A stretch of DNA of 58,490 nucleotides, from positions 1-58,490 of the forward strand of contig JAKVBV010000013.1 of assembly GCA_022446965.1 (NCBI GenBank), in the 5' to 3' direction. This DNA is from Phycisphaerales bacterium (GTDB lineage Bacteria > Planctomycetota > Phycisphaerae > Phycisphaerales > SM1A02). Of this stretch, positions 37,998 through 50,767 are shown piece after piece. The position numbers and the translations under genes were made by a program. Within the stretch, counting starts at the first letter, position 1. Every line of letters begins with the position of its first letter. Below the pieces are notes generated by a model. It made no database searches and was not told the origin of the DNA. It worked only from the letters and a program-made list of their open reading frames with translations.

Positions 37998-40895
<2,898 letters not shown>

Positions 40896-40949
40896 GAGCC
40901 CCGTATCGTATCCGGGATCCGCCCTCGAATGAACCATCCCGGGGGATGT

Positions 40950-41702
40950 TCACGCCGGCGGTTGAACCACCACCACTTCCCCTTGGCGCAGTGGCCGCAT
41001 GAGCCCCTCGGGCACCTCGAATCCATCAGGCATGTGGATGAGCCGGATCTTCTTCTGCAGGGTGTCGGGCAAGGTTTGCAGGTCCTGCAGGCTGGTGTGT
41101 TTGAAGTGCTCGCCGCACTCATGCACGATCACGTCAGCCTCGGACAACCACGCCACGAGTTCAGGCACGAACTCCGTGTCACTGGACCATCCCAGGGTGG
41201 CGGTGCCGTTGGTGATCCGCAGGGCCATGCAGGGCAGAGAGTGCACGGTTCGGCGCACGTGCACCGTGAGCTCTCCGATCGTGGCGGGTGACTCGGGCGT
41301 GATGGGACACGGCTCGAAGTAGTCCTCGAGCGTAGATCGCGAATTGGCCACCGCTCGAGTTGAGCCATCCATGGCTGGCGCCAGCTTCTCCCACACGCGG
41401 TCGAGCACTTCGGGCAATGCATGCAAGCGTGGGCGGCGAGCGGGGTCACGCACATACCGATTGAGAAACCCCATGGTCTCAAGACCGTCGGAGTGATCGC
41501 CGTGCAGATGGGTCAACAAGATGTCGGACACGTCGGTTGGATCCACGGTCCATCCGGAGGCCTCGGTGGCATCGCGGTACATGTGCAGCACGGCCCCCGG
41601 GCAGTCGATGGCCACGAGTCCTTCGGACGAGGCGATCAACCCCGATGATCCGAACGACGCCGCCGTGAAGGCGTCACCGATTCCCGTGACCAGCAATTCC
41701 AT
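40950..41702 (-). CDS. MBL-fold metallo-hydrolase
   Basis: 250-aa metallo-beta-lactamase-fold protein. The zinc motif is LLTHLHGDHSDG (H-x-H-x-D-H), with further ligands in RRTVHSLPCMALRI, GWSSDTEFV and VIVHECGEH. It resembles RNase Z/ElaC-like single-domain members that act on phosphodiesters or metabolites. ATG 41702 is used; the open frame extends to 41777. It lies 55 bp before gcvP on the same strand and divergent from the porin gene. Substrate unknown. Confidence 0.85.
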   Translation of the reverse strand: MELLVTGIGDAFTAASFGSSGLIASSEGLVAIDCPGAVLHMYRDATEASGWTVDPTDVSDILLTHLHGDHSDGLETMGFLNRYVRDPARRPRLHALPEVLDRVWEKLAPAMDGSTRAVANSRSTLEDYFEPCPITPESPATIGELTVHVRRTVHSLPCMALRITNGTATLGWSSDTEFVPELVAWLSEADVIVHECGEHFKHTSLQDLQTLPDTLQKKIRLIHMPDGFEVPEGLMRPLRQGEVVVVQPPA

Positions 41703-41782
41703 GTCCACATGGTGCCATGGATTCGCGTGCTGTGCCAATCCCACAGGGGTACACTTGCAAACACTGTGTGGAGACACGCTTG

Positions 41783-43255
41783 ATGGCGGGACACCCCCCT
41801 ACACATCTGATCTGGATCAGCACCACGCTTGCCCTGTGTGCTGCGTCGTCGACGCACGGTCAATCAACGCAAGAATCGCTGCTCAATCGCCTTGAGCAGG
41901 AGATGCTCGACGCCCAGATCGAACAGCGCCTGGCCGATTATGAAGGCCAGACCGCGTTTGAACGCATGACCTTCGACTACGGCACGTCGTTGCGGGTGGG
42001 TATCGCTGGCCTGCAGAACTCGACCGGGCAAGACTCGACGATGTTCCAGTACGAGGCCAACCTCTTCGCCAACATGGTGGTTGACGGCGGGCACCGATTC
42101 TTCGGCAACCTCCGCTTCCTGTACAACCAATACGACGTGCACCGTGGTTCGAATGAGGACGGGTTCCTCATCCCCTATGGCAACCGCTACTGGTACGAGT
42201 TCGATCTCAAGGGGCTGCAGCGTGCCACTGAAGGTGGCGCCGGCGACGTGGGCCTGAAGATTCGCGCCGGCCGGATGTTCTCCAACTGGAACTCGGGGGC
42301 GATCTACAGCAACGATCTGTACGGCGTGCGCATGCGTGGTGACTGGGAGCAATGGTCCTGGGAGGCCATCTTTGGCCGCACGGCCAGCAGTGGCTTCTAC
42401 GACTTCGACCCCGGCCGTCCAAGTTACGACTCGAACACGAATCGACTGCTCTACGGCGTACGAGGTGCATACGCCGTGGGCTCCGATCTCGAGTTGTTTG
42501 TCTCGAACTTCTGGCAACGTGACCACAACGATCCCAACGTACAGACGGTGGACATCGGCGGCATCGTGTACCAACACGACTTCACCTACAACTCGCAGTA
42601 CCTCTCGCTTGGAGGTAGCGGCACGGTGGGCCCGGAGTTCCTCTGGACCGCCGAGTTCATCCATGAGACAGGCCGCGGCACCAGCCGCATGCAGATCCAG
42701 CCGGATCTGACGGCCCTGCAAACCACCGAAGACATCTCCGCCTGGGCCGGCGTGGTCAACATGGCCTGGACACCATCGGGCATCGCCACTCGACCTCGCA
42801 TGGACGCCACCATCGCCTTCGGCACGGGCGACAACGACCGCTTCACCGCGGCGGGCTCGATGGCGGGCAACACACCTGGCACGCAGGACCGCAGTTTCCA
42901 GAGCCTGGGGTACGTGAACACCGGCCTAGCCGCGGCACCAACGTTGTCCAACTTGATGATGCTGCGTGTTGGCGCTTCCACGGGCGTCGCGATCGACCCT
43001 CGTCGCCCCGATGCGTTGCGCATGGGTCTTGATGTGTTCGTCTATGGCCAGCAGGATTCAAACGCACCGATGTCCATCCCCACCGGGTCGGGCACATTTG
43101 CAGGCTGGGCACTGGACGGCAAGGTCGATTGGCGACTGACCAGCGACGTGAGTTTCACGGTTCGCGGCGGCGTGTACTTCCCGCCACCGGGCGTGGCACC
43201 GGCTGCCGACTTCACACGGCACTTCGTCTATGGAGGATTCACCTATGCCTTCTAG
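41783..43255 (+). CDS. Outer-membrane beta-barrel (porin-like)
   Basis: 490-aa exported protein with a signal peptide (HLIWISTTLALCAASSTHGQ), an N-terminal coiled-coil segment (about 28-55: LNRLEQEMLDAQIEQRLADY) and then a run of amphipathic beta strands rich in aromatics. The last residues are HFVYGGFTYAF, the terminal Phe typical of barrels inserted by BamA. Planctomycetes have an outer membrane and such proteins. GGAG lies about ten bases before ATG 41783. It opens a run of six genes and overlaps the lipoprotein gene by 11 bp. Substrate or ligand unknown. Confidence 0.8.
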   Translation: MAGHPPTHLIWISTTLALCAASSTHGQSTQESLLNRLEQEMLDAQIEQRLADYEGQTAFERMTFDYGTSLRVGIAGLQNSTGQDSTMFQYEANLFANMVVDGGHRFFGNLRFLYNQYDVHRGSNEDGFLIPYGNRYWYEFDLKGLQRATEGGAGDVGLKIRAGRMFSNWNSGAIYSNDLYGVRMRGDWEQWSWEAIFGRTASSGFYDFDPGRPSYDSNTNRLLYGVRGAYAVGSDLELFVSNFWQRDHNDPNVQTVDIGGIVYQHDFTYNSQYLSLGGSGTVGPEFLWTAEFIHETGRGTSRMQIQPDLTALQTTEDISAWAGVVNMAWTPSGIATRPRMDATIAFGTGDNDRFTAAGSMAGNTPGTQDRSFQSLGYVNTGLAAAPTLSNLMMLRVGASTGVAIDPRRPDALRMGLDVFVYGQQDSNAPMSIPTGSGTFAGWALDGKVDWRLTSDVSFTVRGGVYFPPPGVAPAADFTRHFVYGGFTYAF

Positions 43256-43826
43256 ATCGCTGCTTCTGTGTCTTTTGGTGTGGTGCACGGGCTGCTCGAT
43301 GGAACGAACCCGTGTGGAGACATCCGCCGTGGTGCAGTTCCCGGGGCCCGACGACACCCTCGATTTCTGGGACACCTTGGCCGATCAGCCGGTGGCCACC
43401 AACAACGATGCGCTGCACGGCCTCATCCTGCTACATGACGGCGATGCGGGCATTCTCGATTCGTGGCCGCAGCGCGAAGCACGCGCCAAGGCGGTGGGCT
43501 GGCTGCCCGCCGACGCCACGCTGGACCCGGATGAATCAGCCGCTGCAGGCCATCTGGCCATGGCGGGCTGTGCGATTCTCGATGTGCGGGGCGGCCTGTC
43601 CATGCGGCTCTGGGGCCGAAAACCTCGATTTTGTTTGCGAGAACTGGTTCACATTGGGGTGCTACCGGGCATATCTGAACATGAGGCCCTCTCCGGGGCC
43701 GAATTCATCGCCTTCATCGAGTCGCTGGAAGACCGCCAGCGTGTCGATGCGGCCTGGGCACACCGTCTGCAGCAAGACGAGCCTGCCCGCCCGACGGATC
43801 CGTACGCCAAGGAGGATCAACCATGA
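43245..43826 (+). CDS. Lipoprotein of the porin-FecR cluster
   Basis: 193-aa lipoprotein. The signal peptide SRSLLLCLLVWCTGC ends in a lipobox-like segment with the modified Cys at about 17. The mature part is alpha/beta (FWDTLADQPVATNNDALHGL, AAGHLAMAGCAILDVRGG, FCLRELVHIGVLPG) without a recognised domain. GGAGG lies eight bases before ATG 43245. It overlaps the barrel gene by 11 bp and the FecR gene by four bases (ATGA), so it should be cotranslated with both. It may be the periplasmic partner that links barrel and FecR proteins. Confidence 0.72.
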   Translation: MPSRSLLLCLLVWCTGCSMERTRVETSAVVQFPGPDDTLDFWDTLADQPVATNNDALHGLILLHDGDAGILDSWPQREARAKAVGWLPADATLDPDESAAAGHLAMAGCAILDVRGGLSMRLWGRKPRFCLRELVHIGVLPGISEHEALSGAEFIAFIESLEDRQRVDAAWAHRLQQDEPARPTDPYAKEDQP

Positions 43827-45334
43827 GTACTGCACGCACGCTCGGCATCATGCTGGTGACGGCCCTGACAGCCTGCCCCTTGGCGATGGCACAGGATGAA
43901 CCGGTCACCACAGCCACACCGAACACCCCGATCCTGCCGGCCCAAGAAAGTCAAGTGCAGTCCGTCCAACAGAAGCTCGATGCGTTGGCGACACAGGCCG
44001 CTCAAGCAGTGGCCGAACTACCTGCCGGTGAGCAGCGCACCTTGCAGACGGTCGTCATGGCCGCGACAGGCAAGTGCCAGTGGCGAGCCACCGCTGACAA
44101 GCCTTGGGCCACTGCCAAAGCCGACCAGGTACTCACCCAAGGCACGCAGATTCGCACTGGTCGCAAATCCAAGCTCGTGCTCCGTGTCGGCCTCAACGCG
44201 ACATTGCTCATTGATTCACTCGCTCGTGTCACCATTCCGACCGTGCTGCACCAAGGCAAGGTGCTCACCACCACCGTGCAGGTGGACCGCGGCCGAGCCG
44301 ACGTCAAGGTGGGCCATGTTGGACTGACCAACGATTTCAGTGTGCTCACGCCAAGTGGCGCGCTGGCCGTGAAGGGCACCGAGTTCGCCGTCTCACACAG
44401 TGCGCTCAAAGGCACGCAGATCGTGTCGGCACGGACCAACGCCATGCGCGCGATTGAGGTCAGCTACTACGGGTCCAAGGCGACCAACTATCTGTCGGCC
44501 TCATCAGTGTCCACGCAGGAGACCCCCAATCCCGCCAACACCGCCGCCTTCGCCAGTGCAGGCGCCATGCCGCTTACCGCATCCGAAGCGGTGGATCGTC
44601 AGGATGCGGCATCGGCTACGGCTGAAGCGGTAGTTGGCGCGGATCCAGTGCAGGGCTCAACTCGAACGCAGGTGGCTGCCCAGCAGGAATCTAACACTGA
44701 AGATGCGGTAGATGACCTGCCACTGCCGCCGGACTATCCGCAGAATCTCGACGGGTGGAACGACTACTTCCAGCACACCGTGCTGCCCGAGGACGACGGC
44801 CAACTCGCCGCGACGATCTACTTCGACCTGCAAGTGACCCACTTCGTCGATTCTGCGGGCAACGAGATTCAGGCCCGCCGCGTGCCCGCAGACTTCGAGA
44901 ACCGGTTGTATCTGGCCACGTCGTGGTACGACCCATCACGCGAAACCTATCTGGAAACGCATGGCGATGACACCGTGCTCAACGTCCCATGGGGCGCCGC
45001 ACTGCCTGATGCAACCACGTCGTATCTCGGCGCCGCATACGCCGACATCATCGCCTACGGCGACAATGTTCCAGAGGGATATGACGGTGGCAGCGCCGAT
45101 CTCAACGCCCTGTTGTCGGTGATGAACGACTTCTGCGTGGTCACCTTCGATGAGAACGGTAACCAAGTTGCGGCGTGCCGCCAGGCCTTCGCCGAAGCAC
45201 TCAACGCCTATCTGCACAACGCTACAGGCACCACGGCCTACGCCGAGGCCATCGCCGCCTACAACGATTACTACGAGTCGGGCGGCAGCGGTAACTACAC
45301 CAGCGCCGGCGATTGCCCCACCTGCCCCGATTGA
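43823..45334 (+). CDS. FecR-domain periplasmic protein
   Basis: 503-aa exported protein with signal peptide MSTARTLGIMLVTALTACPLAMAQ. A FecR domain (about 75-195) contains QVLTQGTQIRTGRKSKLVLR, a middle strand region, and the hallmark FSVLTPSGALAVKGTEFAVS. The C-terminal part (about 290-500), with WNDYFQHTVLPEDDGQL and repeated Tyr/Asn-rich segments, is of unknown fold. FecR of the iron type signals to a sigma factor, but this copy has no membrane helix or cytoplasmic tail, so it acts within the periplasm. It starts in an ATGA overlap with the lipoprotein gene. Confidence 0.85.
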   Translation: MSTARTLGIMLVTALTACPLAMAQDEPVTTATPNTPILPAQESQVQSVQQKLDALATQAAQAVAELPAGEQRTLQTVVMAATGKCQWRATADKPWATAKADQVLTQGTQIRTGRKSKLVLRVGLNATLLIDSLARVTIPTVLHQGKVLTTTVQVDRGRADVKVGHVGLTNDFSVLTPSGALAVKGTEFAVSHSALKGTQIVSARTNAMRAIEVSYYGSKATNYLSASSVSTQETPNPANTAAFASAGAMPLTASEAVDRQDAASATAEAVVGADPVQGSTRTQVAAQQESNTEDAVDDLPLPPDYPQNLDGWNDYFQHTVLPEDDGQLAATIYFDLQVTHFVDSAGNEIQARRVPADFENRLYLATSWYDPSRETYLETHGDDTVLNVPWGAALPDATTSYLGAAYADIIAYGDNVPEGYDGGSADLNALLSVMNDFCVVTFDENGNQVAACRQAFAEALNAYLHNATGTTAYAEAIAAYNDYYESGGSGNYTSAGDCPTCPD

Positions 45335-45396
45335 TCGGTGAACCCGCTCCCCCGTTGGGCAGGCAATACCCTTGAGAAGGCCGTATCCTCGACACC

Positions 45397-48057
45397 ATGA
45401 GGCGTTCGGGCCCCATGGTGTTGTTGGCGAGTTGCCTCGCCACGTTATGCGTGGTGCTCTTGTCGCAATGGGGACTGCTGCAAGGTCTTGAGGACCGAAT
45501 GCTCGATGCCCGCATGCGGCATTGGCCACGTGACGCCACCCCCATGTCCAATGAAATCGTGCTGGTGGCCATCGACGACAAGTCGCTGGAACAGATCGGT
45601 CGTTGGCCCTGGCCGCGTACTCGACTGGCCGATTGCATCGCCGAGTTGTGCCGGGCCGGTGCCCGAACCGTGGCCTTGGATCTTGATTTGAGCGACCCAC
45701 AAGGCCCAGCGTGGGATGCTGCTCGCGGCGCCATCGTCGACGGCGACGCGGCACTCGCTCAGGCCGCCGACAACCGACTCGTCATCGCCGTGTTGCCCAG
45801 CGATGACGAGCTGCACCTGCGTTGGCACGATGCCGGTGGTGATCCGGAACGTCTGGACGCCGTGCTGGGCAGATTGCGCACCGACCCAGGTGGCGACCCC
45901 ACAGAAGGCCTCGCCGATGGAGATCTCGCCGCCGCACGCTCGACCACATACATGCTGCGTCGCGCTGCCATCGAACAATGCATTGCAGGTGGTGAGTCGG
46001 CAGAGGCACTCTTGGACCGGATGGGTTCACAGGCCGCCACGCTCGAGCAATTGGTTCGTGGTGCCGCACGCCGAGATGCCGTGCGCGATGCGCTGCCGGG
46101 CTTGGTGGACCACGATGTATCTCGTGGTCACTCTCCTGCCGACAAACTTCCCTTGGTCGCGCTGGCGGAACAGGCCGGCTCGGTGGGCTATGTGACCATC
46201 CTGCACCGTGATCCCGATGGTGCCATTCGCCGGTTGTACGGTTCGGTGCCCATGAGCGATGGCCAGGTCGTGCTGCCTCTGGGCCTCGCCGCGGTCGCGA
46301 TGCACATTGATGAGTCGCCCGCATCGATCACCGTGCATGACGAGCATGTACGCATCGGCGATCACACCCTGCCGATGTCCAACGGCCTCATCACGATGAA
46401 CTGGCCGCGATCCCCCACCGGCCCCGACTGGCCCGACCTGCACCGCACTGACGCCTCCACCCCACGCTTCCATGGCCATATCGGCATGGGGGCCATCGCA
46501 ATGCTCGCCGACTCGCGTCGCACACTGAACGCGATGGAACAGCAACTTCAGGATCAAACGGCGCTGCTGCTTCGCGCCATCAGAAACGACCCGGGCATCC
46601 AATCGAGCGATTGGCTGGCAGACGAGTACGTGGCGGAAGTGCAGGACGAGATCGACTTCACATTGGGCGATGTCCGCACCGACGAACAACTTGCCGAGCT
46701 GCAGACTGGAACCGACGACGACACAGGCGCACTTTTGCTTGCCATGTTGCGATGGCGACAGTTGGCCGACGCCCATGCGATGGCTCGCGAACAGATCGCC
46801 GACGTGGAGACGTCGTTGCGTACTGCCGTGTCTGACCGGCTCTGCTTTGTCGGGTGGACGGCCACCGGGGCGTTGGCAGACTTCGTCCCCACAGCTGTCG
46901 GCCCCCGCACTCCCGGCGTGGTGGTGCATGCATCGCTCGCAGACATGCTGCTGCAGGAACGCACGCTGCATGCGGTGCCCGCGTCCACGTCGATTTCGAT
47001 CACCGCCGTATTGGGATTGATCGCCGGGCTCATCACGGCCGTCGTGTCCCCGTGGGCAGCCACGTTGATGGTGCTGCTCCTGGCCGGACTCTGGCTCGGC
47101 ATTGATCTCTCCGCCCTCAACACGGGCCTGCTCTTGCCGGCCGCCACGCCACTGGTCGCCATGACCGCCAGTTGGGCGACCGGAACCGGTACACGAGCAG
47201 TGTTGGAGCAGCAGGCTCGAGCGTATGTCACACGACAATTCAGGGCCCGTGTCCCCGGTGAACTCGTTGATGAACTCGCCCGCAATCCCGCCGCCGTGAG
47301 CATGACCGGTCAACGACGAGAGGTGAGTGTGCTGTTCGCCGATCTCGCTGGCTTTACCGCCGCAAGCGAACGAATGGGATCGGAAGCCACGGTCGCCCTG
47401 CTCAACCGGTGCATGCGTGACCTCACGGGTGCACTCACCGATCATCAGGCGTACGTCAACAAGTTTCTCGGCGACGGACTGCTCGCCTTCTGGTCGGCCT
47501 TTCACGAGCAACCGGATCAGGCCACGTTGGCATGCCGTGCCGCATTGGCCTGCCAACAGGCCATCGAAGCGATCAACACAGATCGCCCCGGCGAACCGCC
47601 GCTGCACGCGCGCATCGGCATCGCCACCGGCGAAGCGATCGTGGGCGATTGCGGCGCTCCGCCGCGACTCAATGACTACACCGTCATCGGCGACACGGCG
47701 AATCTCGCCGCGCGTCTCGAGTCGGCCAACAAGCAGTTCGCCACCGCAATCTTGATCGACGACACGACGCACGCCCAACTCGATGAGCCACTGCACACGC
47801 GTCCGCTGGGCCCGGTGGGTGTCGTGGGCCGTGAGCAGGCGGTGCAGATGTTCGAACTGCTGGATGCACCCATCTCCCAAGACATTGCCGAAGCTTGGAC
47901 CACGTTGGCTGCGGCAATGCATGTTGGCGAAGGCGTCGCGCAGGCCCTGGATGCGCTGTCGGCCGCCGGCGTGCCCGACACATCGCTCGCCTTGTGGCGG
48001 TCGCATGTGGATGGCGACACGGATGATTCAACCGTGTTGCGATTGACAGAGAAATAG
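45397..48057 (+). CDS. CHASE2-domain adenylate cyclase
   Basis: 886-aa membrane sensor. A helix at about 7-27 is followed by an extracytoplasmic CHASE2 domain (about 30-500, with IDDKSLEQIGRWPWPRTRLA), three helices (about 530-605), and a class III cyclase domain (about 640-830). Metal Asp residues D649 (VLFADLAGFT) and D693 (GDGLLAF), K689 and T762 (adenine-selective) and N769/R773 of NLAARLE are present, so it should make cAMP. A 62-bp gap separates it from the FecR gene. CHASE2 cyclases beside FecR proteins are a recurring pattern in bacteria. Confidence 0.92.
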   Translation: MRRSGPMVLLASCLATLCVVLLSQWGLLQGLEDRMLDARMRHWPRDATPMSNEIVLVAIDDKSLEQIGRWPWPRTRLADCIAELCRAGARTVALDLDLSDPQGPAWDAARGAIVDGDAALAQAADNRLVIAVLPSDDELHLRWHDAGGDPERLDAVLGRLRTDPGGDPTEGLADGDLAAARSTTYMLRRAAIEQCIAGGESAEALLDRMGSQAATLEQLVRGAARRDAVRDALPGLVDHDVSRGHSPADKLPLVALAEQAGSVGYVTILHRDPDGAIRRLYGSVPMSDGQVVLPLGLAAVAMHIDESPASITVHDEHVRIGDHTLPMSNGLITMNWPRSPTGPDWPDLHRTDASTPRFHGHIGMGAIAMLADSRRTLNAMEQQLQDQTALLLRAIRNDPGIQSSDWLADEYVAEVQDEIDFTLGDVRTDEQLAELQTGTDDDTGALLLAMLRWRQLADAHAMAREQIADVETSLRTAVSDRLCFVGWTATGALADFVPTAVGPRTPGVVVHASLADMLLQERTLHAVPASTSISITAVLGLIAGLITAVVSPWAATLMVLLLAGLWLGIDLSALNTGLLLPAATPLVAMTASWATGTGTRAVLEQQARAYVTRQFRARVPGELVDELARNPAAVSMTGQRREVSVLFADLAGFTAASERMGSEATVALLNRCMRDLTGALTDHQAYVNKFLGDGLLAFWSAFHEQPDQATLACRAALACQQAIEAINTDRPGEPPLHARIGIATGEAIVGDCGAPPRLNDYTVIGDTANLAARLESANKQFATAILIDDTTHAQLDEPLHTRPLGPVGVVGREQAVQMFELLDAPISQDIAEAWTTLAAAMHVGEGVAQALDALSAAGVPDTSLALWRSHVDGDTDDSTVLRLTEK

Positions 48058-48071
48058 GCCAGCATTGCCCC

Positions 48072-49343
48072 ATGTCGATTCGCCCTGATCAAGTTGCACC
48101 GCTCCTGGAGACAAGTTGTCTGCTTGGATCCACGGCCGACGCCAAGGTGGTGTTGAGCCGGGTGGCCGACTGTCTCCGTGATGTGCTGCAGGCCGAACGG
48201 GCCACGGTATTCCGACATGACGTCGAGGCCGGAGAACTGGTATCTGTCGTGGCCCATGGCCCTGATGGCAACCTTGACGACGATCTCGATGCGATCCACG
48301 TTCCGCTGGGACAGGGCATCGCCGGTGCGGCTGGCTCGCGACGGGAGATCGTGAACATCCCCGATGCCTATGCCGATGACCGCTTCTATCGCGACATCGA
48401 TGAGGCAACGGGCTATCGCACCAGATCAATCCTCACCGTGCCGCTCGTTGCTCCAGAACGCGACGACCTCATCGGCGTGGCCCAGATTCTCAATCGCGCT
48501 GGCGGCCCGTTCACGGAAGACGACGAACGCCTTGCCACCGCACTCGCGGCGCAGTGCGCCGTCGCCATGCAGCGTGCGGATCTGGTGAAGGACCACGTTC
48601 GTCTCGCCGCGGTTGAACACGCACTCGACCTCGCCCGAGATATTCAACAGGACACGTTTCCCACCGATTTTGCGGCACCATCGGGCTGGGAGTGCGGTGG
48701 TTGGAGCATGCCGGCAGAACAAACTGGCGGAGACACATTCGATGTGGTCAACACTGACACCGGATTGCATCTGTTTGTCGGCGATGCCACCGGACACGGC
48801 ATCGGCCCGGCCTTGAGCGCGTCACAAGCGCGATCGATGCTGCGCATGGCGACACGACTGCACACGCCACCATTCGACATCATTCGGCATCTCAATGCGC
48901 AGATTCACGCCGACTCGCGCAGTTCGCGGTTCGTCACGGCGTGGTTGGGCTTCGTGCAGGCTGATTCGGGATGCATGGTGTCGATGGCCGCTGGACAAGG
49001 CCCCCTGCTCATTGTGCGAGCGGACGGCGCCGTGGAACACCTCAATGCCGACGCACCACCGCTGGGCGTCATGCCTGAGTTAATGCTCGATGCCCCGCAC
49101 ACATTGGAGTTTGGACCGGGCGACCTACTCGCAGTGCCTACCGATGGAATCATGGAGGCGACCGACGAGGCCGGCGACTACGGCGAGGGCCGGTTGGTCG
49201 ATCTGCTTCGAACAAACCGTGCCCAAGCCCTCGATGTGCTGCTCGAGGCCGTCCGAGCCGACACCATGGACTTTCATCAGGGGCGCGAAGCGGCGGATGA
49301 CCGCACGATCCTAGTGGTGCGGCGAACCGCAAACGGTCGATAA
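48072..49343 (+). CDS. GAF-SpoIIE (PP2C) serine phosphatase
   Basis: 423-aa cytoplasmic protein with an N-terminal GAF domain (about 12-175, with RATVFRHDVEAGELVS and VPLVAPERDDLIGVAQILNR) and a PP2C-type SpoIIE phosphatase domain (about 200-420; GGDTFDVV, VGDATGHGIGPALSAS, LAVPTDGIMEATD) keeping the metal-binding Asp residues. It may dephosphorylate an anti-anti-sigma or STAS-type protein under control of a bound small molecule, possibly cyclic nucleotide. It follows the cyclase gene by 14 bp and precedes the polymerase-like gene by 26 bp. Confidence 0.9.
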   Translation: MSIRPDQVAPLLETSCLLGSTADAKVVLSRVADCLRDVLQAERATVFRHDVEAGELVSVVAHGPDGNLDDDLDAIHVPLGQGIAGAAGSRREIVNIPDAYADDRFYRDIDEATGYRTRSILTVPLVAPERDDLIGVAQILNRAGGPFTEDDERLATALAAQCAVAMQRADLVKDHVRLAAVEHALDLARDIQQDTFPTDFAAPSGWECGGWSMPAEQTGGDTFDVVNTDTGLHLFVGDATGHGIGPALSASQARSMLRMATRLHTPPFDIIRHLNAQIHADSRSSRFVTAWLGFVQADSGCMVSMAAGQGPLLIVRADGAVEHLNADAPPLGVMPELMLDAPHTLEFGPGDLLAVPTDGIMEATDEAGDYGEGRLVDLLRTNRAQALDVLLEAVRADTMDFHQGREAADDRTILVVRRTANGR

Positions 49344-49369
49344 CACCCCTCAGCGGACCCACCAGACGC

Positions 49370-50767
49370 ATGCGCTATCTGATCGCCATCTATCTCGCCG
49401 CTCTGGCCATCGTGATCATCACGAAGATGGTGTCGCACGCCAAGCAGGGCAAGGTGGAGTTGTTCTCGATCCGCAACCTTTTCCTCGCGGGCTTCTGCGT
49501 CTTTCAGTTGTCCAGCGCCGTGCTTGGCCTAGCCTTCTCGATCTTCGGTGACACACGCCCGGAGAACTTCCAGACCACGCCGTTGATCTACGCCTTCATG
49601 GTGTCGATCTTTCTGTGGCTGTTCTTCTGGGCGTACAACCGCCAATGGCGTGCCCTGAACAAACTCCGTCAATCTGGCAGCGGCTGGGACGGCCCTGGCA
49701 GTGGATGGATCCTGCTGAGCATTGTCATGCTGGCATTCGGCGCGATCCTCAAGATTGGCCTGGTGACCATCCCCTTGGTGAACATCGTTGCCAGCCAGAT
49801 GGGTGGCGGCGTGATCGCCGCGGCAGCGGGATGTGCCGCCTGGGGCTGGTCGAAGAACTTCCGCAACCCGACATTCGCCGCACTGGCGGTCGCCGTACTG
49901 CTGGCTGCCTCGTCGCTGATTCTGTATCGCGCCTTCGGCCGACGTCCTGTGCTCGGTGTGTTGATGGCGTTTGGCTGGGCGCTGTACTGGGGCTTGTGGC
50001 GGGCGTTGCCCGTGGGCATGCTGCTGCGGCGGCTCTCCATCTGGGGTGGCGCGGCCATGTTCGCCTTGATCGCGTACACCGCCAGTCGATCCTCGGCGAG
50101 CCAATTCGAGAAGAAGGGCATCGCCGAACTCCTCAAGGCTGTGCTGCAGGTTCGCGGCGAAGACTTGCAGGTGGGCATCGCTGCCGTCTTCTCCGGTCAG
50201 AATGCCGGGCCGCTGTCGATGTGGTGCATCGAAACCTACGGCACCGCCTATCCCTACGAACCACTGCATCAGGTCGAGTATCTGTTCACGATACCCATCC
50301 CCCGGGCATGGTTCCCAAGCAAGCCCGAACCACTGGGCAAGCAGATCGTGGACCATGGATTCATCCGCCTCAAGGGTTCGGGCAACAGGTACAACGTGGG
50401 ACCGGGCATCATCGGCCACGCAGCACACGATGTGCCGTACATCGCGCTCCCGCTGTACGCGCTGGCTCTAGGCTTCCTGGTGCGTTGCCTCGACGAAAAG
50501 GTGCAATGGTCGCTCCATCTCCCTGTGGCGGTGATCCCCATCGGCTGCGCCCTTGGTCAGGTGATGGCATTGCCACGTGGAGAAACGGCGCTCTTCGTGT
50601 TCGAAGGCACACTGGCCATTGCTGGCGCGTGGATCTTCATTCGGCTCGGGGGTCGAATGGTCGCCATGTTCGGCGGCCTCGTGCAGACGCCACCGGAGGA
50701 TCCATTCGACCCGTTGCTGCCATCTGAAGAGGTATGGGATGACCACGCCCCTGCCGGGACCTATTGA
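49370..50767 (+). CDS. Polytopic membrane protein, oligosaccharide polymerase-like
   Basis: 465-aa protein with about ten to twelve membrane helices. A large loop near residues 265-340 holds ETYGTAYPYEPLHQVEYLFTIP and IPRAWFPSKPEPLGK, a pattern seen in oligosaccharide repeat-unit (O-antigen) polymerase-like proteins. The soluble C-terminal tail is acidic. It is the last gene of the six-gene block that starts with the barrel protein. A role in capsule or exopolysaccharide synthesis is plausible but no other Wzx/Wzy gene is present. Convergent with the dockerin gene, three bases away. Confidence 0.65.
   Translation: MRYLIAIYLAALAIVIITKMVSHAKQGKVELFSIRNLFLAGFCVFQLSSAVLGLAFSIFGDTRPENFQTTPLIYAFMVSIFLWLFFWAYNRQWRALNKLRQSGSGWDGPGSGWILLSIVMLAFGAILKIGLVTIPLVNIVASQMGGGVIAAAAGCAAWGWSKNFRNPTFAALAVAVLLAASSLILYRAFGRRPVLGVLMAFGWALYWGLWRALPVGMLLRRLSIWGGAAMFALIAYTASRSSASQFEKKGIAELLKAVLQVRGEDLQVGIAAVFSGQNAGPLSMWCIETYGTAYPYEPLHQVEYLFTIPIPRAWFPSKPEPLGKQIVDHGFIRLKGSGNRYNVGPGIIGHAAHDVPYIALPLYALALGFLVRCLDEKVQWSLHLPVAVIPIGCALGQVMALPRGETALFVFEGTLAIAGAWIFIRLGGRMVAMFGGLVQTPPEDPFDPLLPSEEVWDDHAPAGTY

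What the first reader, a model, noticed from the sequence alone, without database searches (positions are those of the whole stretch)
41783..50767. Barrel-lipoprotein-FecR-CHASE2 cyclase-phosphatase-polymerase run
Six same-strand genes with overlaps or short gaps span the outer membrane, periplasm, inner membrane and cytoplasm. A barrel, a lipoprotein and a periplasmic FecR could pass a signal to the CHASE2 domain, with cAMP then acting on the GAF-phosphatase and a polysaccharide polymerase. FecR-CHASE2 pairs recur in bacteria, but I know of no description of the full six-gene unit.
Basis: partly seen in the sequence, partly recalled or inferred. Interest (0 to 1): 0.7.

Follow-up and report, generated by a model that had tools for sequence, protein, structure and literature searches.

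The report
Split outer-membrane cAMP signalling module
A marine planctomycete has a conserved set of genes that probably passes a signal from the outer membrane to a cAMP-making enzyme, with a likely cAMP-destroying enzyme and a phosphatase as off-switch and output; the polymerase-like gene at the end of the run is probably just a neighbour.

Summary
The six same-strand genes are real, at the stated coordinates, but they are not the unit. In 151 related genomes, barrel, lipoprotein, FecR and CHASE2-cyclase occur together in 55, in that order on one strand in 46 of 56 inspected. The polymerase shows no association and is adjacent in 4; two relatives (one genus) lie beside glycosyltransferase genes. 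The GAF-phosphatase often adjoins the cyclase on either strand; 54 of 56 genomes with it match the cyclase. A neighbour count without preset families recovers these six. One class III cyclase and no cNMP_binding protein were found in the genome. Architecture resembles Sinorhizobium NsrA-CyaK, where a FecR-TPR-barrel protein is required for a CHASE2 cyclase to respond. Here FecR and an AlgE-type barrel are separate, and a lipoprotein without a known family is added. Most likely: a trans-envelope sensor controlling cAMP, reset by the phosphodiesterase and read by the GAF-phosphatase. cAMP synthesis, hydrolysis and binding are inferred, not shown. New variant of a known kind.

The parts
40950..41702 (-).
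   Evidence: profile of 22 relatives best matches Apyc1 7u2r (2.8e-33) and 7u2s (8.8e-32) over nearly full length; HxHxDH and the following Glu invariant in 27 of 27; on the opposite strand upstream of BARREL in 30 fetched genomes; Pfam Apyc1 35.3 bits is under its cut-off of 50
41703..41782 (.). 80-nt intergenic stretch between the divergent phosphodiesterase and barrel genes, presumed promoter region
   Evidence: position only; the sigma-70 scan found nothing there and no excess over shuffles; median spacing 143.5 nt in 30 relatives
41783..43255 (+). AlgE-type outer-membrane beta-barrel, 490 aa, signal peptide by eye
   Evidence: Alginate_exp in 26 of 27 aligned members; Foldseek top 17 PDB hits all AlgE (model pLDDT 56.8)
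43245..43826 (+). lipoprotein without a Pfam family, 193 aa, overlapping the barrel gene by 11 nt
   Evidence: Cys17 invariant in 55 of 55; no significant Pfam or PDB match; in 151 genomes found only where barrel, FecR and cyclase are also found
43823..45334 (+). periplasmic FecR-domain protein, Sec-type signal by eye, no membrane segment after it
   Evidence: FecR PF04773 28.2 bits; no hydropathy-predicted membrane segment; 4-nt overlap with the lipoprotein gene
45397..48057 (+). CHASE2 - membrane stretch - class III (IIIb-type) adenylate cyclase, 886 aa, the only class III cyclase found in the genome
   Evidence: CHASE2 132.9 bits, Guanylate_cyc 69.2 bits; hydrophobic stretches 3-31 and 526-576; metal Asp, Lys, Thr, Asn, Arg invariant in 54 of 54; 1 match in own genome
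48072..49343 (+). GAF - SpoIIE/PP2C phosphatase, proposed cAMP receptor and output
   Evidence: GAF 68.1 and SpoIIE 133.5 bits; GAF closest in PDB to PDE2A GAF-B 1.6e-32 and CyaB2 1e-28, but so are control GAFs; 54 of 56 genomes with it match the cyclase
49370..50767 (+). membrane protein, possible polysaccharide polymerase; neighbour, judged not part of the module
   Evidence: adjacent in 4 of 151 genomes; no co-occurrence; relatives in one other genus beside a GT4 gene

Best explanation
A trans-envelope cAMP relay of the NsrA-CyaK type with its outer-membrane receptor split into separate proteins. The AlgE-type barrel and the outer-membrane lipoprotein sense a ligand or the state of the envelope (inferred). 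The periplasmic FecR protein passes this to the CHASE2 domain (inferred from NsrA, whose own FecR domain and barrel are on one chain). The CHASE2 enzyme makes cAMP (inferred from intact catalytic residues). The divergent Apyc1-like phosphodiesterase removes cAMP and resets the system (inferred from family). The GAF-PP2C phosphatase binds the cyclic nucleotide and dephosphorylates a STAS-type or other phosphoprotein (inferred from phylogenetic profile, neighbourhood, GAF type and lack of CRP-type receptors). Shown here: composition, order, co-inheritance and conserved active sites. Not shown: signal, direction, cAMP synthesis, hydrolysis, binding, target.
For: Barrel, lipoprotein, FecR and cyclase all present in 55 of 151 genomes; lipoprotein without cyclase in 0. 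In order on one strand in 45 of 55 fetched genomes plus the window. Clustering of neighbours in 60 fetched stretches and part of the window, the stretches having been chosen for a cyclase or barrel match, finds only six families in 12 or more genera: cyclase 30, barrel 26, FecR 24, lipoprotein 17, phosphodiesterase 13, GAF-phosphatase 12; the next reach 4. The four-gene order is also in L005, L006, L013 and L016. Phosphodiesterase: Apyc1 is the best PDB match, active-site motif intact, in 34 of 36 same-family genomes with all four genes against 9 of 51 with none of barrel, lipoprotein or FecR. GAF-phosphatase tracks the cyclase, 54 of 56; in G025, one of the two exceptions, it lies 46 nt from another class III cyclase. 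It adjoins the phosphodiesterase in G011 and G116 away from the core, and lies 8-9 kb from a CHASE2 cyclase in G103 and G121, which lack the barrel set. One cyclase and no PF00027 match in the own genome; 23 of 55 module genomes have no PF00027 match, 19 of these 23 have the GAF-phosphatase. NsrA carries FecR and TPRs and, by the paper, an OM barrel; its gene overlaps cyaK by 1 nt; perception of its signals requires NsrA (PMC7529298, passages read).
Against: Control GAFs (a sigma-54 activator in L007; a kinase paralogue in the same genome) match the same PDB structures, so the GAF match does not discriminate. G006, G009, G051 and G075 have the four genes, no PF00027 match and no GAF-phosphatase orthologue, so another output must exist there. 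G011 has phosphodiesterase and GAF-phosphatase but no cyclase match. G116, G119 and G099 have a different gene order and in G010 the cyclase is on another contig. Eighteen of the 55 module genomes have no phosphodiesterase match at E 1e-20. The phosphodiesterase misses the Pfam Apyc1 and NCBIfam cyclic-nucleotide-phosphodiesterase cut-offs (35.3 of 50, 45.3 of 400 bits). In S. meliloti the FecR gene smc02177, in the cyaD1 neighbourhood, was not needed for perception of the plant signal (PMC5498481, passages). Lipoprotein and barrel models are of low confidence. Profiles of barrel, lipoprotein and FecR protein do not hit NsrA.
Confidence: 0.6

Rival explanations
1. The same sensor relay, but cAMP acts through another receptor (a CRP-type protein in some genomes, an unknown one in others) and the GAF-phosphatase is a neighbour with a different ligand.
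For: 32 of 55 module genomes have PF00027 matches; in S. meliloti the output is the CRP-type Clr (PMC5498481, passages); four module genomes lack the GAF-phosphatase and PF00027 both; the GAF match is not discriminating.
Against: Own genome and 22 other module genomes have no PF00027 match; the GAF-phosphatase follows the cyclase more tightly (odds ratio 156) than PF00027 does (4.6), relatedness not corrected for.
Confidence: 0.22
2. A polysaccharide production unit: the AlgE-type barrel exports, the last gene polymerises, and cyclase and phosphatase regulate it.
For: Barrel is nearest to the alginate-export family; relatives of the last gene in one genus lie beside a glycosyltransferase.
Against: Polymerase adjacent in 4 of 151 genomes and not associated with the barrel (15 of 59 genomes with it, 31 of 92 without); none of the six recurrent neighbour families is a polysaccharide synthase (rarer neighbours were not all annotated).
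Confidence: 0.08
3. A Pycsar-like antiphage system, with cyclase and an Apyc1-like enzyme as its control.
For: Cyclase domain matches PADLOC PycC models, best 2e-25; the phosphodiesterase is nearest to Apyc1.
Against: Lys and Thr of the adenine-type pocket are invariant in 54 of 54 (assignment recalled); FecR protein, GAF-phosphatase and phosphodiesterase have no PADLOC match and none of the six recurrent families looks like an effector (rarer neighbours not checked); gcvP synteny in five genera points to an ordinary chromosomal site.
Confidence: 0.03
4. FecIR-FecA type cell-surface signalling to a sigma factor.
For: FecR domain plus an outer-membrane barrel.
Against: FecR protein has a signal sequence by eye and no membrane segment; no TonB-receptor family among the barrel matches; none of the six recurrent neighbour families is a sigma factor.
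Confidence: 0.02

Closest known systems
NsrA-CyaK / CyaD1-D2 cAMP signalling of Sinorhizobium meliloti (PMC7529298 and PMC5498481 passages read; PMC13001267 abstract and passages read; Garnerone 2018 not held, recalled only)
   Same: FecR domain, outer-membrane barrel and CHASE2 class III cyclase encoded together; nsrA and cyaK overlap; CyaK matches the cyclase profile at 2.2e-107
   Different: NsrA has FecR and TPRs on one chain with a barrel at 600-1200 by the paper, and our barrel and FecR profiles do not hit it; no lipoprotein or Apyc1-like gene among the 12 features shown around it (gene table incomplete); output is the CRP-type Clr; our cyclase is longer (886 against 649 aa) with extra segments inside the CHASE2 span
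Campylobacterota CHASE2-cyclase cluster (PMC9239204, passages and one section read)
   Same: CHASE2 adenylate cyclase clustered with a phosphodiesterase and an FecR-domain outer-membrane protein
   Different: also a TPR protein; no lipoprotein or GAF-phosphatase named for the cluster in the section read; type of the phosphodiesterase not stated there
BiofilmReg operon of Burkholderiales (PMC5192318, abstract and passages read)
   Same: FecR (LysM-FecR) protein next to a CHASE2 sensor; one f4 genome here (L060) also has LysM-FecR
   Different: histidine kinase and response regulator instead of a cyclase
Apyc1 / class II MBL phosphodiesterases (PMC9117128, passages and section 6 read)
   Same: HxHxDH and following Glu conserved; nearly full-length profile match
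   Different: fixed beside a chromosomal cyclase module; substrate preference unknown; under the Pfam cut-off
AlgE alginate exporter
   Same: best fold and family match of the barrel
   Different: no polysaccharide synthase among the recurrent neighbour families

Membership tests
NsrA-CyaK-type FecR/barrel-CHASE2 cyclase signalling | FecR domain, OM barrel and CHASE2 class III cyclase genes linked | tested here: met
   NsrA comparison
NsrA-CyaK-type FecR/barrel-CHASE2 cyclase signalling | barrel protein required for signal-induced cAMP synthesis | not testable with these tools
   needs genetics and cAMP measurement
NsrA (the protein family itself) | FecR, TPR and barrel on one chain | tested here: not met
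   separate proteins here, no TPR match; barrel and FecR profiles do not hit NsrA
Class III adenylate cyclase (IIIb) | two metal Asp, adenine Lys, Thr in place of Asp, transition-state Asn and Arg | tested here: met
   54 of 54 sequences at each position; residue roles recalled
Apyc1-like MBL phosphodiesterase | full-length similarity and HxHxDH plus catalytic Glu | tested here: met
   equating our Glu75 with E74 of the paper is inferred from the alignment
Apyc1 by curated model | score over the Pfam PF23023 cut-off | tested here: not met
   35.3 bits, cut-off 50
Apyc1-like MBL phosphodiesterase | hydrolysis of cyclic mononucleotides; catalytic Tyr from the other protomer | not tested
   no assay; Tyr112 equivalent not examined
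Alginate_exp / AlgE barrels | PF13372 match and 18-stranded fold | tested here: inconclusive
   window protein 25.0 bits, cut-off 25.2; 26 of 27 members match at E 0.01 or better; AlgE best structural match with a model of pLDDT 56.8
Cyclic-nucleotide-binding GAF | NKFDE-type motif and ligand-contact residues | tested here: inconclusive
   N 24, K/R 19, F 24, D 21, E 22 of 24; D 24, T 22, T 24 of 24 at PDE2A positions 485/488/492, Tyr481 only 5 of 24 (numbering recalled); control GAFs match the same structures
FecR anti-sigma regulator | cytoplasmic N-terminal domain plus membrane segment, sigma factor partner | tested here: not met
   no membrane segment, signal sequence by eye; no sigma factor among the six recurrent neighbour families
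Pycsar | PycC cyclase with a Pycsar effector | tested here: inconclusive
   PycC-like cyclase domain by PADLOC; FecR, GAF-phosphatase and phosphodiesterase without PADLOC match; rarer neighbours not scanned for effectors

The most novel reading that the evidence does not exclude
A CRP-free cAMP pathway from the outer membrane to protein phosphorylation: a barrel-lipoprotein-FecR sensor drives the genome's only class III cyclase, cAMP is read by a GAF domain that switches a PP2C phosphatase acting on a STAS partner (opposed by the REC-GAF-Ser/Thr kinase encoded beside a STAS gene elsewhere in the genome), and a chromosomal Apyc1-like enzyme is its dedicated off-switch.
Probability: 0.35. Interest if true: 0.72.

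Novelty: new variant of a known kind. Interest (0 to 1): 0.55.

Why it matters
It would give a host role to bacterial Apyc1-like enzymes, which the discovery paper left open (PMC9117128), a defined parts list for how an outer-membrane protein talks to a CHASE2 cyclase, and a route by which bacteria without CRP could use cAMP. It also brings in a lipoprotein without a Pfam family that, in the 151 genomes searched, occurs only together with barrel, FecR and cyclase.

Tried and rejected
The polymerase as a member: rejected by survey. Pycsar and FecIR-FecA: see rivals. The thought that the lipoprotein is SLH-like: no SLH match in 33 members at E up to 5, no significant PDB relative (best 0.26, a designed protein), and the model is too weak to search (pLDDT 53.7), so it is dropped. 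GAF-to-PDB matches as proof of cAMP binding: withdrawn after the controls; the L007 control is itself beside a CHASE2 cyclase, so it is not a clean one. Search for other constant partners of the GAF-phosphatase away from the core (20 further stretches plus G011, G116, G025): no other family recurs in 4 or more genomes; in L128 and L132 the gene caller did not recover the GAF-phosphatase, so those two were uninformative. Promoter scan: nothing above shuffles.

Counting choices. Phosphodiesterase presence was taken at E 1e-20 or better, dropping eight weaker genomes of 59. GAF-phosphatase presence was taken as E 1e-50 or better, identity 38% or more and the GAF part covered: 56 of the 148 genomes with any match; under that rule the fragments in G044, G087 and G120 count as absent. 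Cyclase presence is any match at E 1e-3, so in some genomes it rests on the cyclase domain alone. In G087 the divergent phosphodiesterase is only a fragment. Fisher values ignore relatedness; at genus level 29 of 31 genera with the GAF-phosphatase have the cyclase match. The crude first gene caller missed some genes in GC-rich loci, among them the window's own phosphodiesterase, so its genus counts are lower bounds. The stretches were chosen for a cyclase or barrel match; G062, G073 and G120 were not among them.
Full report
What is there. The window is contig C18 of a 2.24-Mb genome, 97.3% complete. A genome of the same family, G085, has a contig of the same length (31,088) as one of a Phycisphaerales bacterium whose isolate name points to Station ALOHA, so the host is taken as a Phycisphaerales planctomycete (inference). 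The lipoprotein start is better placed at 43245. The first two junctions overlap by 11 and 4 nt; the others have gaps of 62, 14 and 26 nt. A divergent gene at 40950-41702, 80 nt from the barrel gene, was not in the finding.

Conservation. The six proteins and the divergent one were each searched in 151 genomes. At E 1e-3 or better the barrel is in 59, lipoprotein in 55, FecR in 57 and cyclase in 68. All four are in 55. Five genomes have some of barrel, lipoprotein and FecR but not all four genes (G047, G062, G073, G085, G123); their completeness is 55, 76, 70, 91 and 85%. Nine genomes have a cyclase match and none of the other three. One of these, G117, has a long cyclase frame (1001 aa) close to a contig end. 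Two others, G103 and G121, have short CHASE2 cyclases of about 700 aa, against 851-1004 aa in 53 complete frames from the fetched stretches.

Order. In 60 fetched stretches from 55 genomes, the four genes lie in order on one strand in 45 genomes, and in the window's own. Of the other ten, six (G047, G059, G090, G085, G065, G053) lack part of the set on the stretch, which reaches a contig end nearby; G116, G119 and G099 have another order; in G010 the cyclase is on a different contig. The lipoprotein gene overlaps the barrel gene in 26 of 53 stretches and is within 91 nt in all 53, with starts chosen by script. The same order is in L005 and L013 (Sedimentisphaerales) and L006 and L016 (labelled Planctomycetales); L004 has barrel, lipoprotein and cyclase without a FecR match. 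A lipoprotein profile matched 42 of 392 genomes drawn across the phylum.

The real set of six. Clustering all predicted neighbours in the 60 stretches and part of the window, without choosing families beforehand, gives only six families in 12 or more genera: cyclase 30, barrel 26, FecR 24, lipoprotein 17, phosphodiesterase 13, GAF-phosphatase 12. The next reach four genera. gcvP, on the far side of the phosphodiesterase, is one of these (four genera; five by tblastn), which shows how fast ordinary synteny decays here. The polymerase is beside the GAF-phosphatase and cyclase only in G000, G001, G002 and G036. Its presence is unrelated to the barrel (15 of 59 genomes with the barrel, 31 of 92 without). 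Relatives in G042 and G069, both of one genus, sit beside a family-4 glycosyltransferase; in G042 an APS kinase and an ATP-sulfurylase are near too. 'Polysaccharide polymerase' is thus plausible but outside the module.

The parts. Barrel: Alginate_exp in 26 of 27 members; a model of modest quality (pLDDT 56.8, pTM 0.58) finds AlgE as its 17 best PDB matches. Lipoprotein: invariant lipobox Cys in 55 of 55, no significant family or PDB match. FecR protein: a Sec-type signal by eye and no membrane segment; in 56 relatives the frame called runs from 253 to 2001 aa, and in L060 it carries LysM. Cyclase: the metal, adenine and transition-state residues are invariant in 54 of 54 (roles recalled), and it is the only PF00211 match in the genome.

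The phosphodiesterase. By sequence its best solved relatives are the Apyc1 enzymes; RNase Z and others follow far behind. HxHxDH and the next Glu are invariant in 27 of 27; that Glu probably corresponds to E74, reported as catalytic. It scores below the Pfam Apyc1 cut-off. It is divergent to the barrel, 35-241 nt away, in 30 fetched genomes, in G087 as a fragment only. In the same family it is in 34 of 36 genomes with all four genes and 9 of 51 genomes without barrel, lipoprotein and FecR; outside the family only 3 of 19 module genomes have it. The Apyc1 paper says closely related bacterial proteins cleave cyclic mononucleotides broadly and leaves their host role open, while B. subtilis YhfI prefers cAMP/cGMP (PMC9117128, passages).

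The output. The GAF-phosphatase is next to the cyclase on the same strand in eight fetched genomes and the window. It is on the opposite strand in 18, in one of which (G055) it is 6.5 kb away. Also where unlinked it follows the cyclase: 54 of 56 genomes with it have a match to the window's cyclase, and 14 cyclase genomes lack it by the rule used. Of the two exceptions, in G025 it lies 46 nt from a gene with cyclase, kinase and TPR domains; G011 has no cyclase match, and there, as in G116 away from the core, it adjoins the phosphodiesterase. In G103 and G121 it lies 8-9 kb from a short CHASE2 cyclase. The genome has no PF00027 match. In all, 23 of 55 module genomes have none; 19 of these have the GAF-phosphatase, and G006, G009, G051 and G075 have neither. 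The GAF is near PDE2A GAF-B and CyaB2, but two other GAFs are too, so cAMP binding is a hypothesis. Aspartates of the SpoIIE domain are conserved. A REC-GAF-Ser/Thr kinase beside a STAS gene lies elsewhere in the genome and would be the natural opponent; this is inference.

How it probably works, and what it resembles. In S. meliloti, perception of two plant signals by CyaK and CyaD1/D2 requires the outer-membrane protein NsrA (PMC7529298, passages); these are CHASE2 cyclases (PMC13001267, passages). NsrA holds FecR (66-160) and TPRs, with the barrel at 600-1200 by that paper, and its gene overlaps cyaK by one base. The planctomycete set looks like the same idea with FecR and barrel as separate proteins and a lipoprotein added. 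An alternative for the sensing step, by analogy with RcsF (recalled), is that the barrel holds the lipoprotein and envelope damage frees it. A CHASE2 cyclase-phosphodiesterase-FecR-TPR cluster is already described in Campylobacterota (PMC9239204, section read). The kind is therefore known; the combination with a barrel-lipoprotein pair, an Apyc1-like enzyme and a GAF-phosphatase was not seen in the listings of searches, which cover an open-access library only.

Verdict. Observation confirmed; interpretation right about the front half and probably about the GAF-phosphatase, wrong about the polymerase, and missing the phosphodiesterase. New variant of a known kind; interest 0.55.

Noticed in passing
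L111:963-3256 (own genome, G000:C80): REC-GAF-Ser/Thr kinase next to a STAS protein; its GAF is 49% identical to the GAF of the window's phosphatase; the same pair is in G006 (L112).
   Followed up: partly
L118:11639-15863 (G025): Class III cyclase-kinase-TPR protein 46 nt from, and divergent to, a GAF-phosphatase orthologue in a genome without a match to the window's cyclase.
   Followed up: partly
L007:3571-7661: CHASE2-type cyclase divergent to a GAF sigma-54 activator whose GAF is very close to CyaB2 (1.2e-48); a GAF-HD gene follows. Possible cyclase-to-GAF pairing elsewhere.
   Followed up: no
L065, L052, L062, L051 and others: FecR proteins of this position range from 253 to 2001 aa; the two long ones scanned show only the FecR domain, and L060 has LysM.
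   Followed up: partly
window about 45310-45331 and relatives: The window's FecR protein and 6 of 56 others end in a Cys-x-x-Cys motif: five in the two closest genera, one in G119; L013 also ends so.
   Followed up: no
L009:121-4423: CHASE2 cyclase of a Bdellovibrio-labelled MAG directly follows a type I phosphodiesterase/nucleotide pyrophosphatase gene.
   Followed up: no
L110:1598-2143: A gene annotated DUF5706 lies between a GntR regulator and nsrA-cyaK in S. meliloti; from memory this family includes Pycsar membrane effectors. Not checked.
   Followed up: no
window 37998-40937 (-): gcvP keeps its place beside the phosphodiesterase gene in five genera, a useful synteny yardstick.
   Followed up: partly
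L117 (G102): The match to the Apyc1-like protein lies about 300 nt from a PF00027 match in a genome where the module is on another contig.
   Followed up: no
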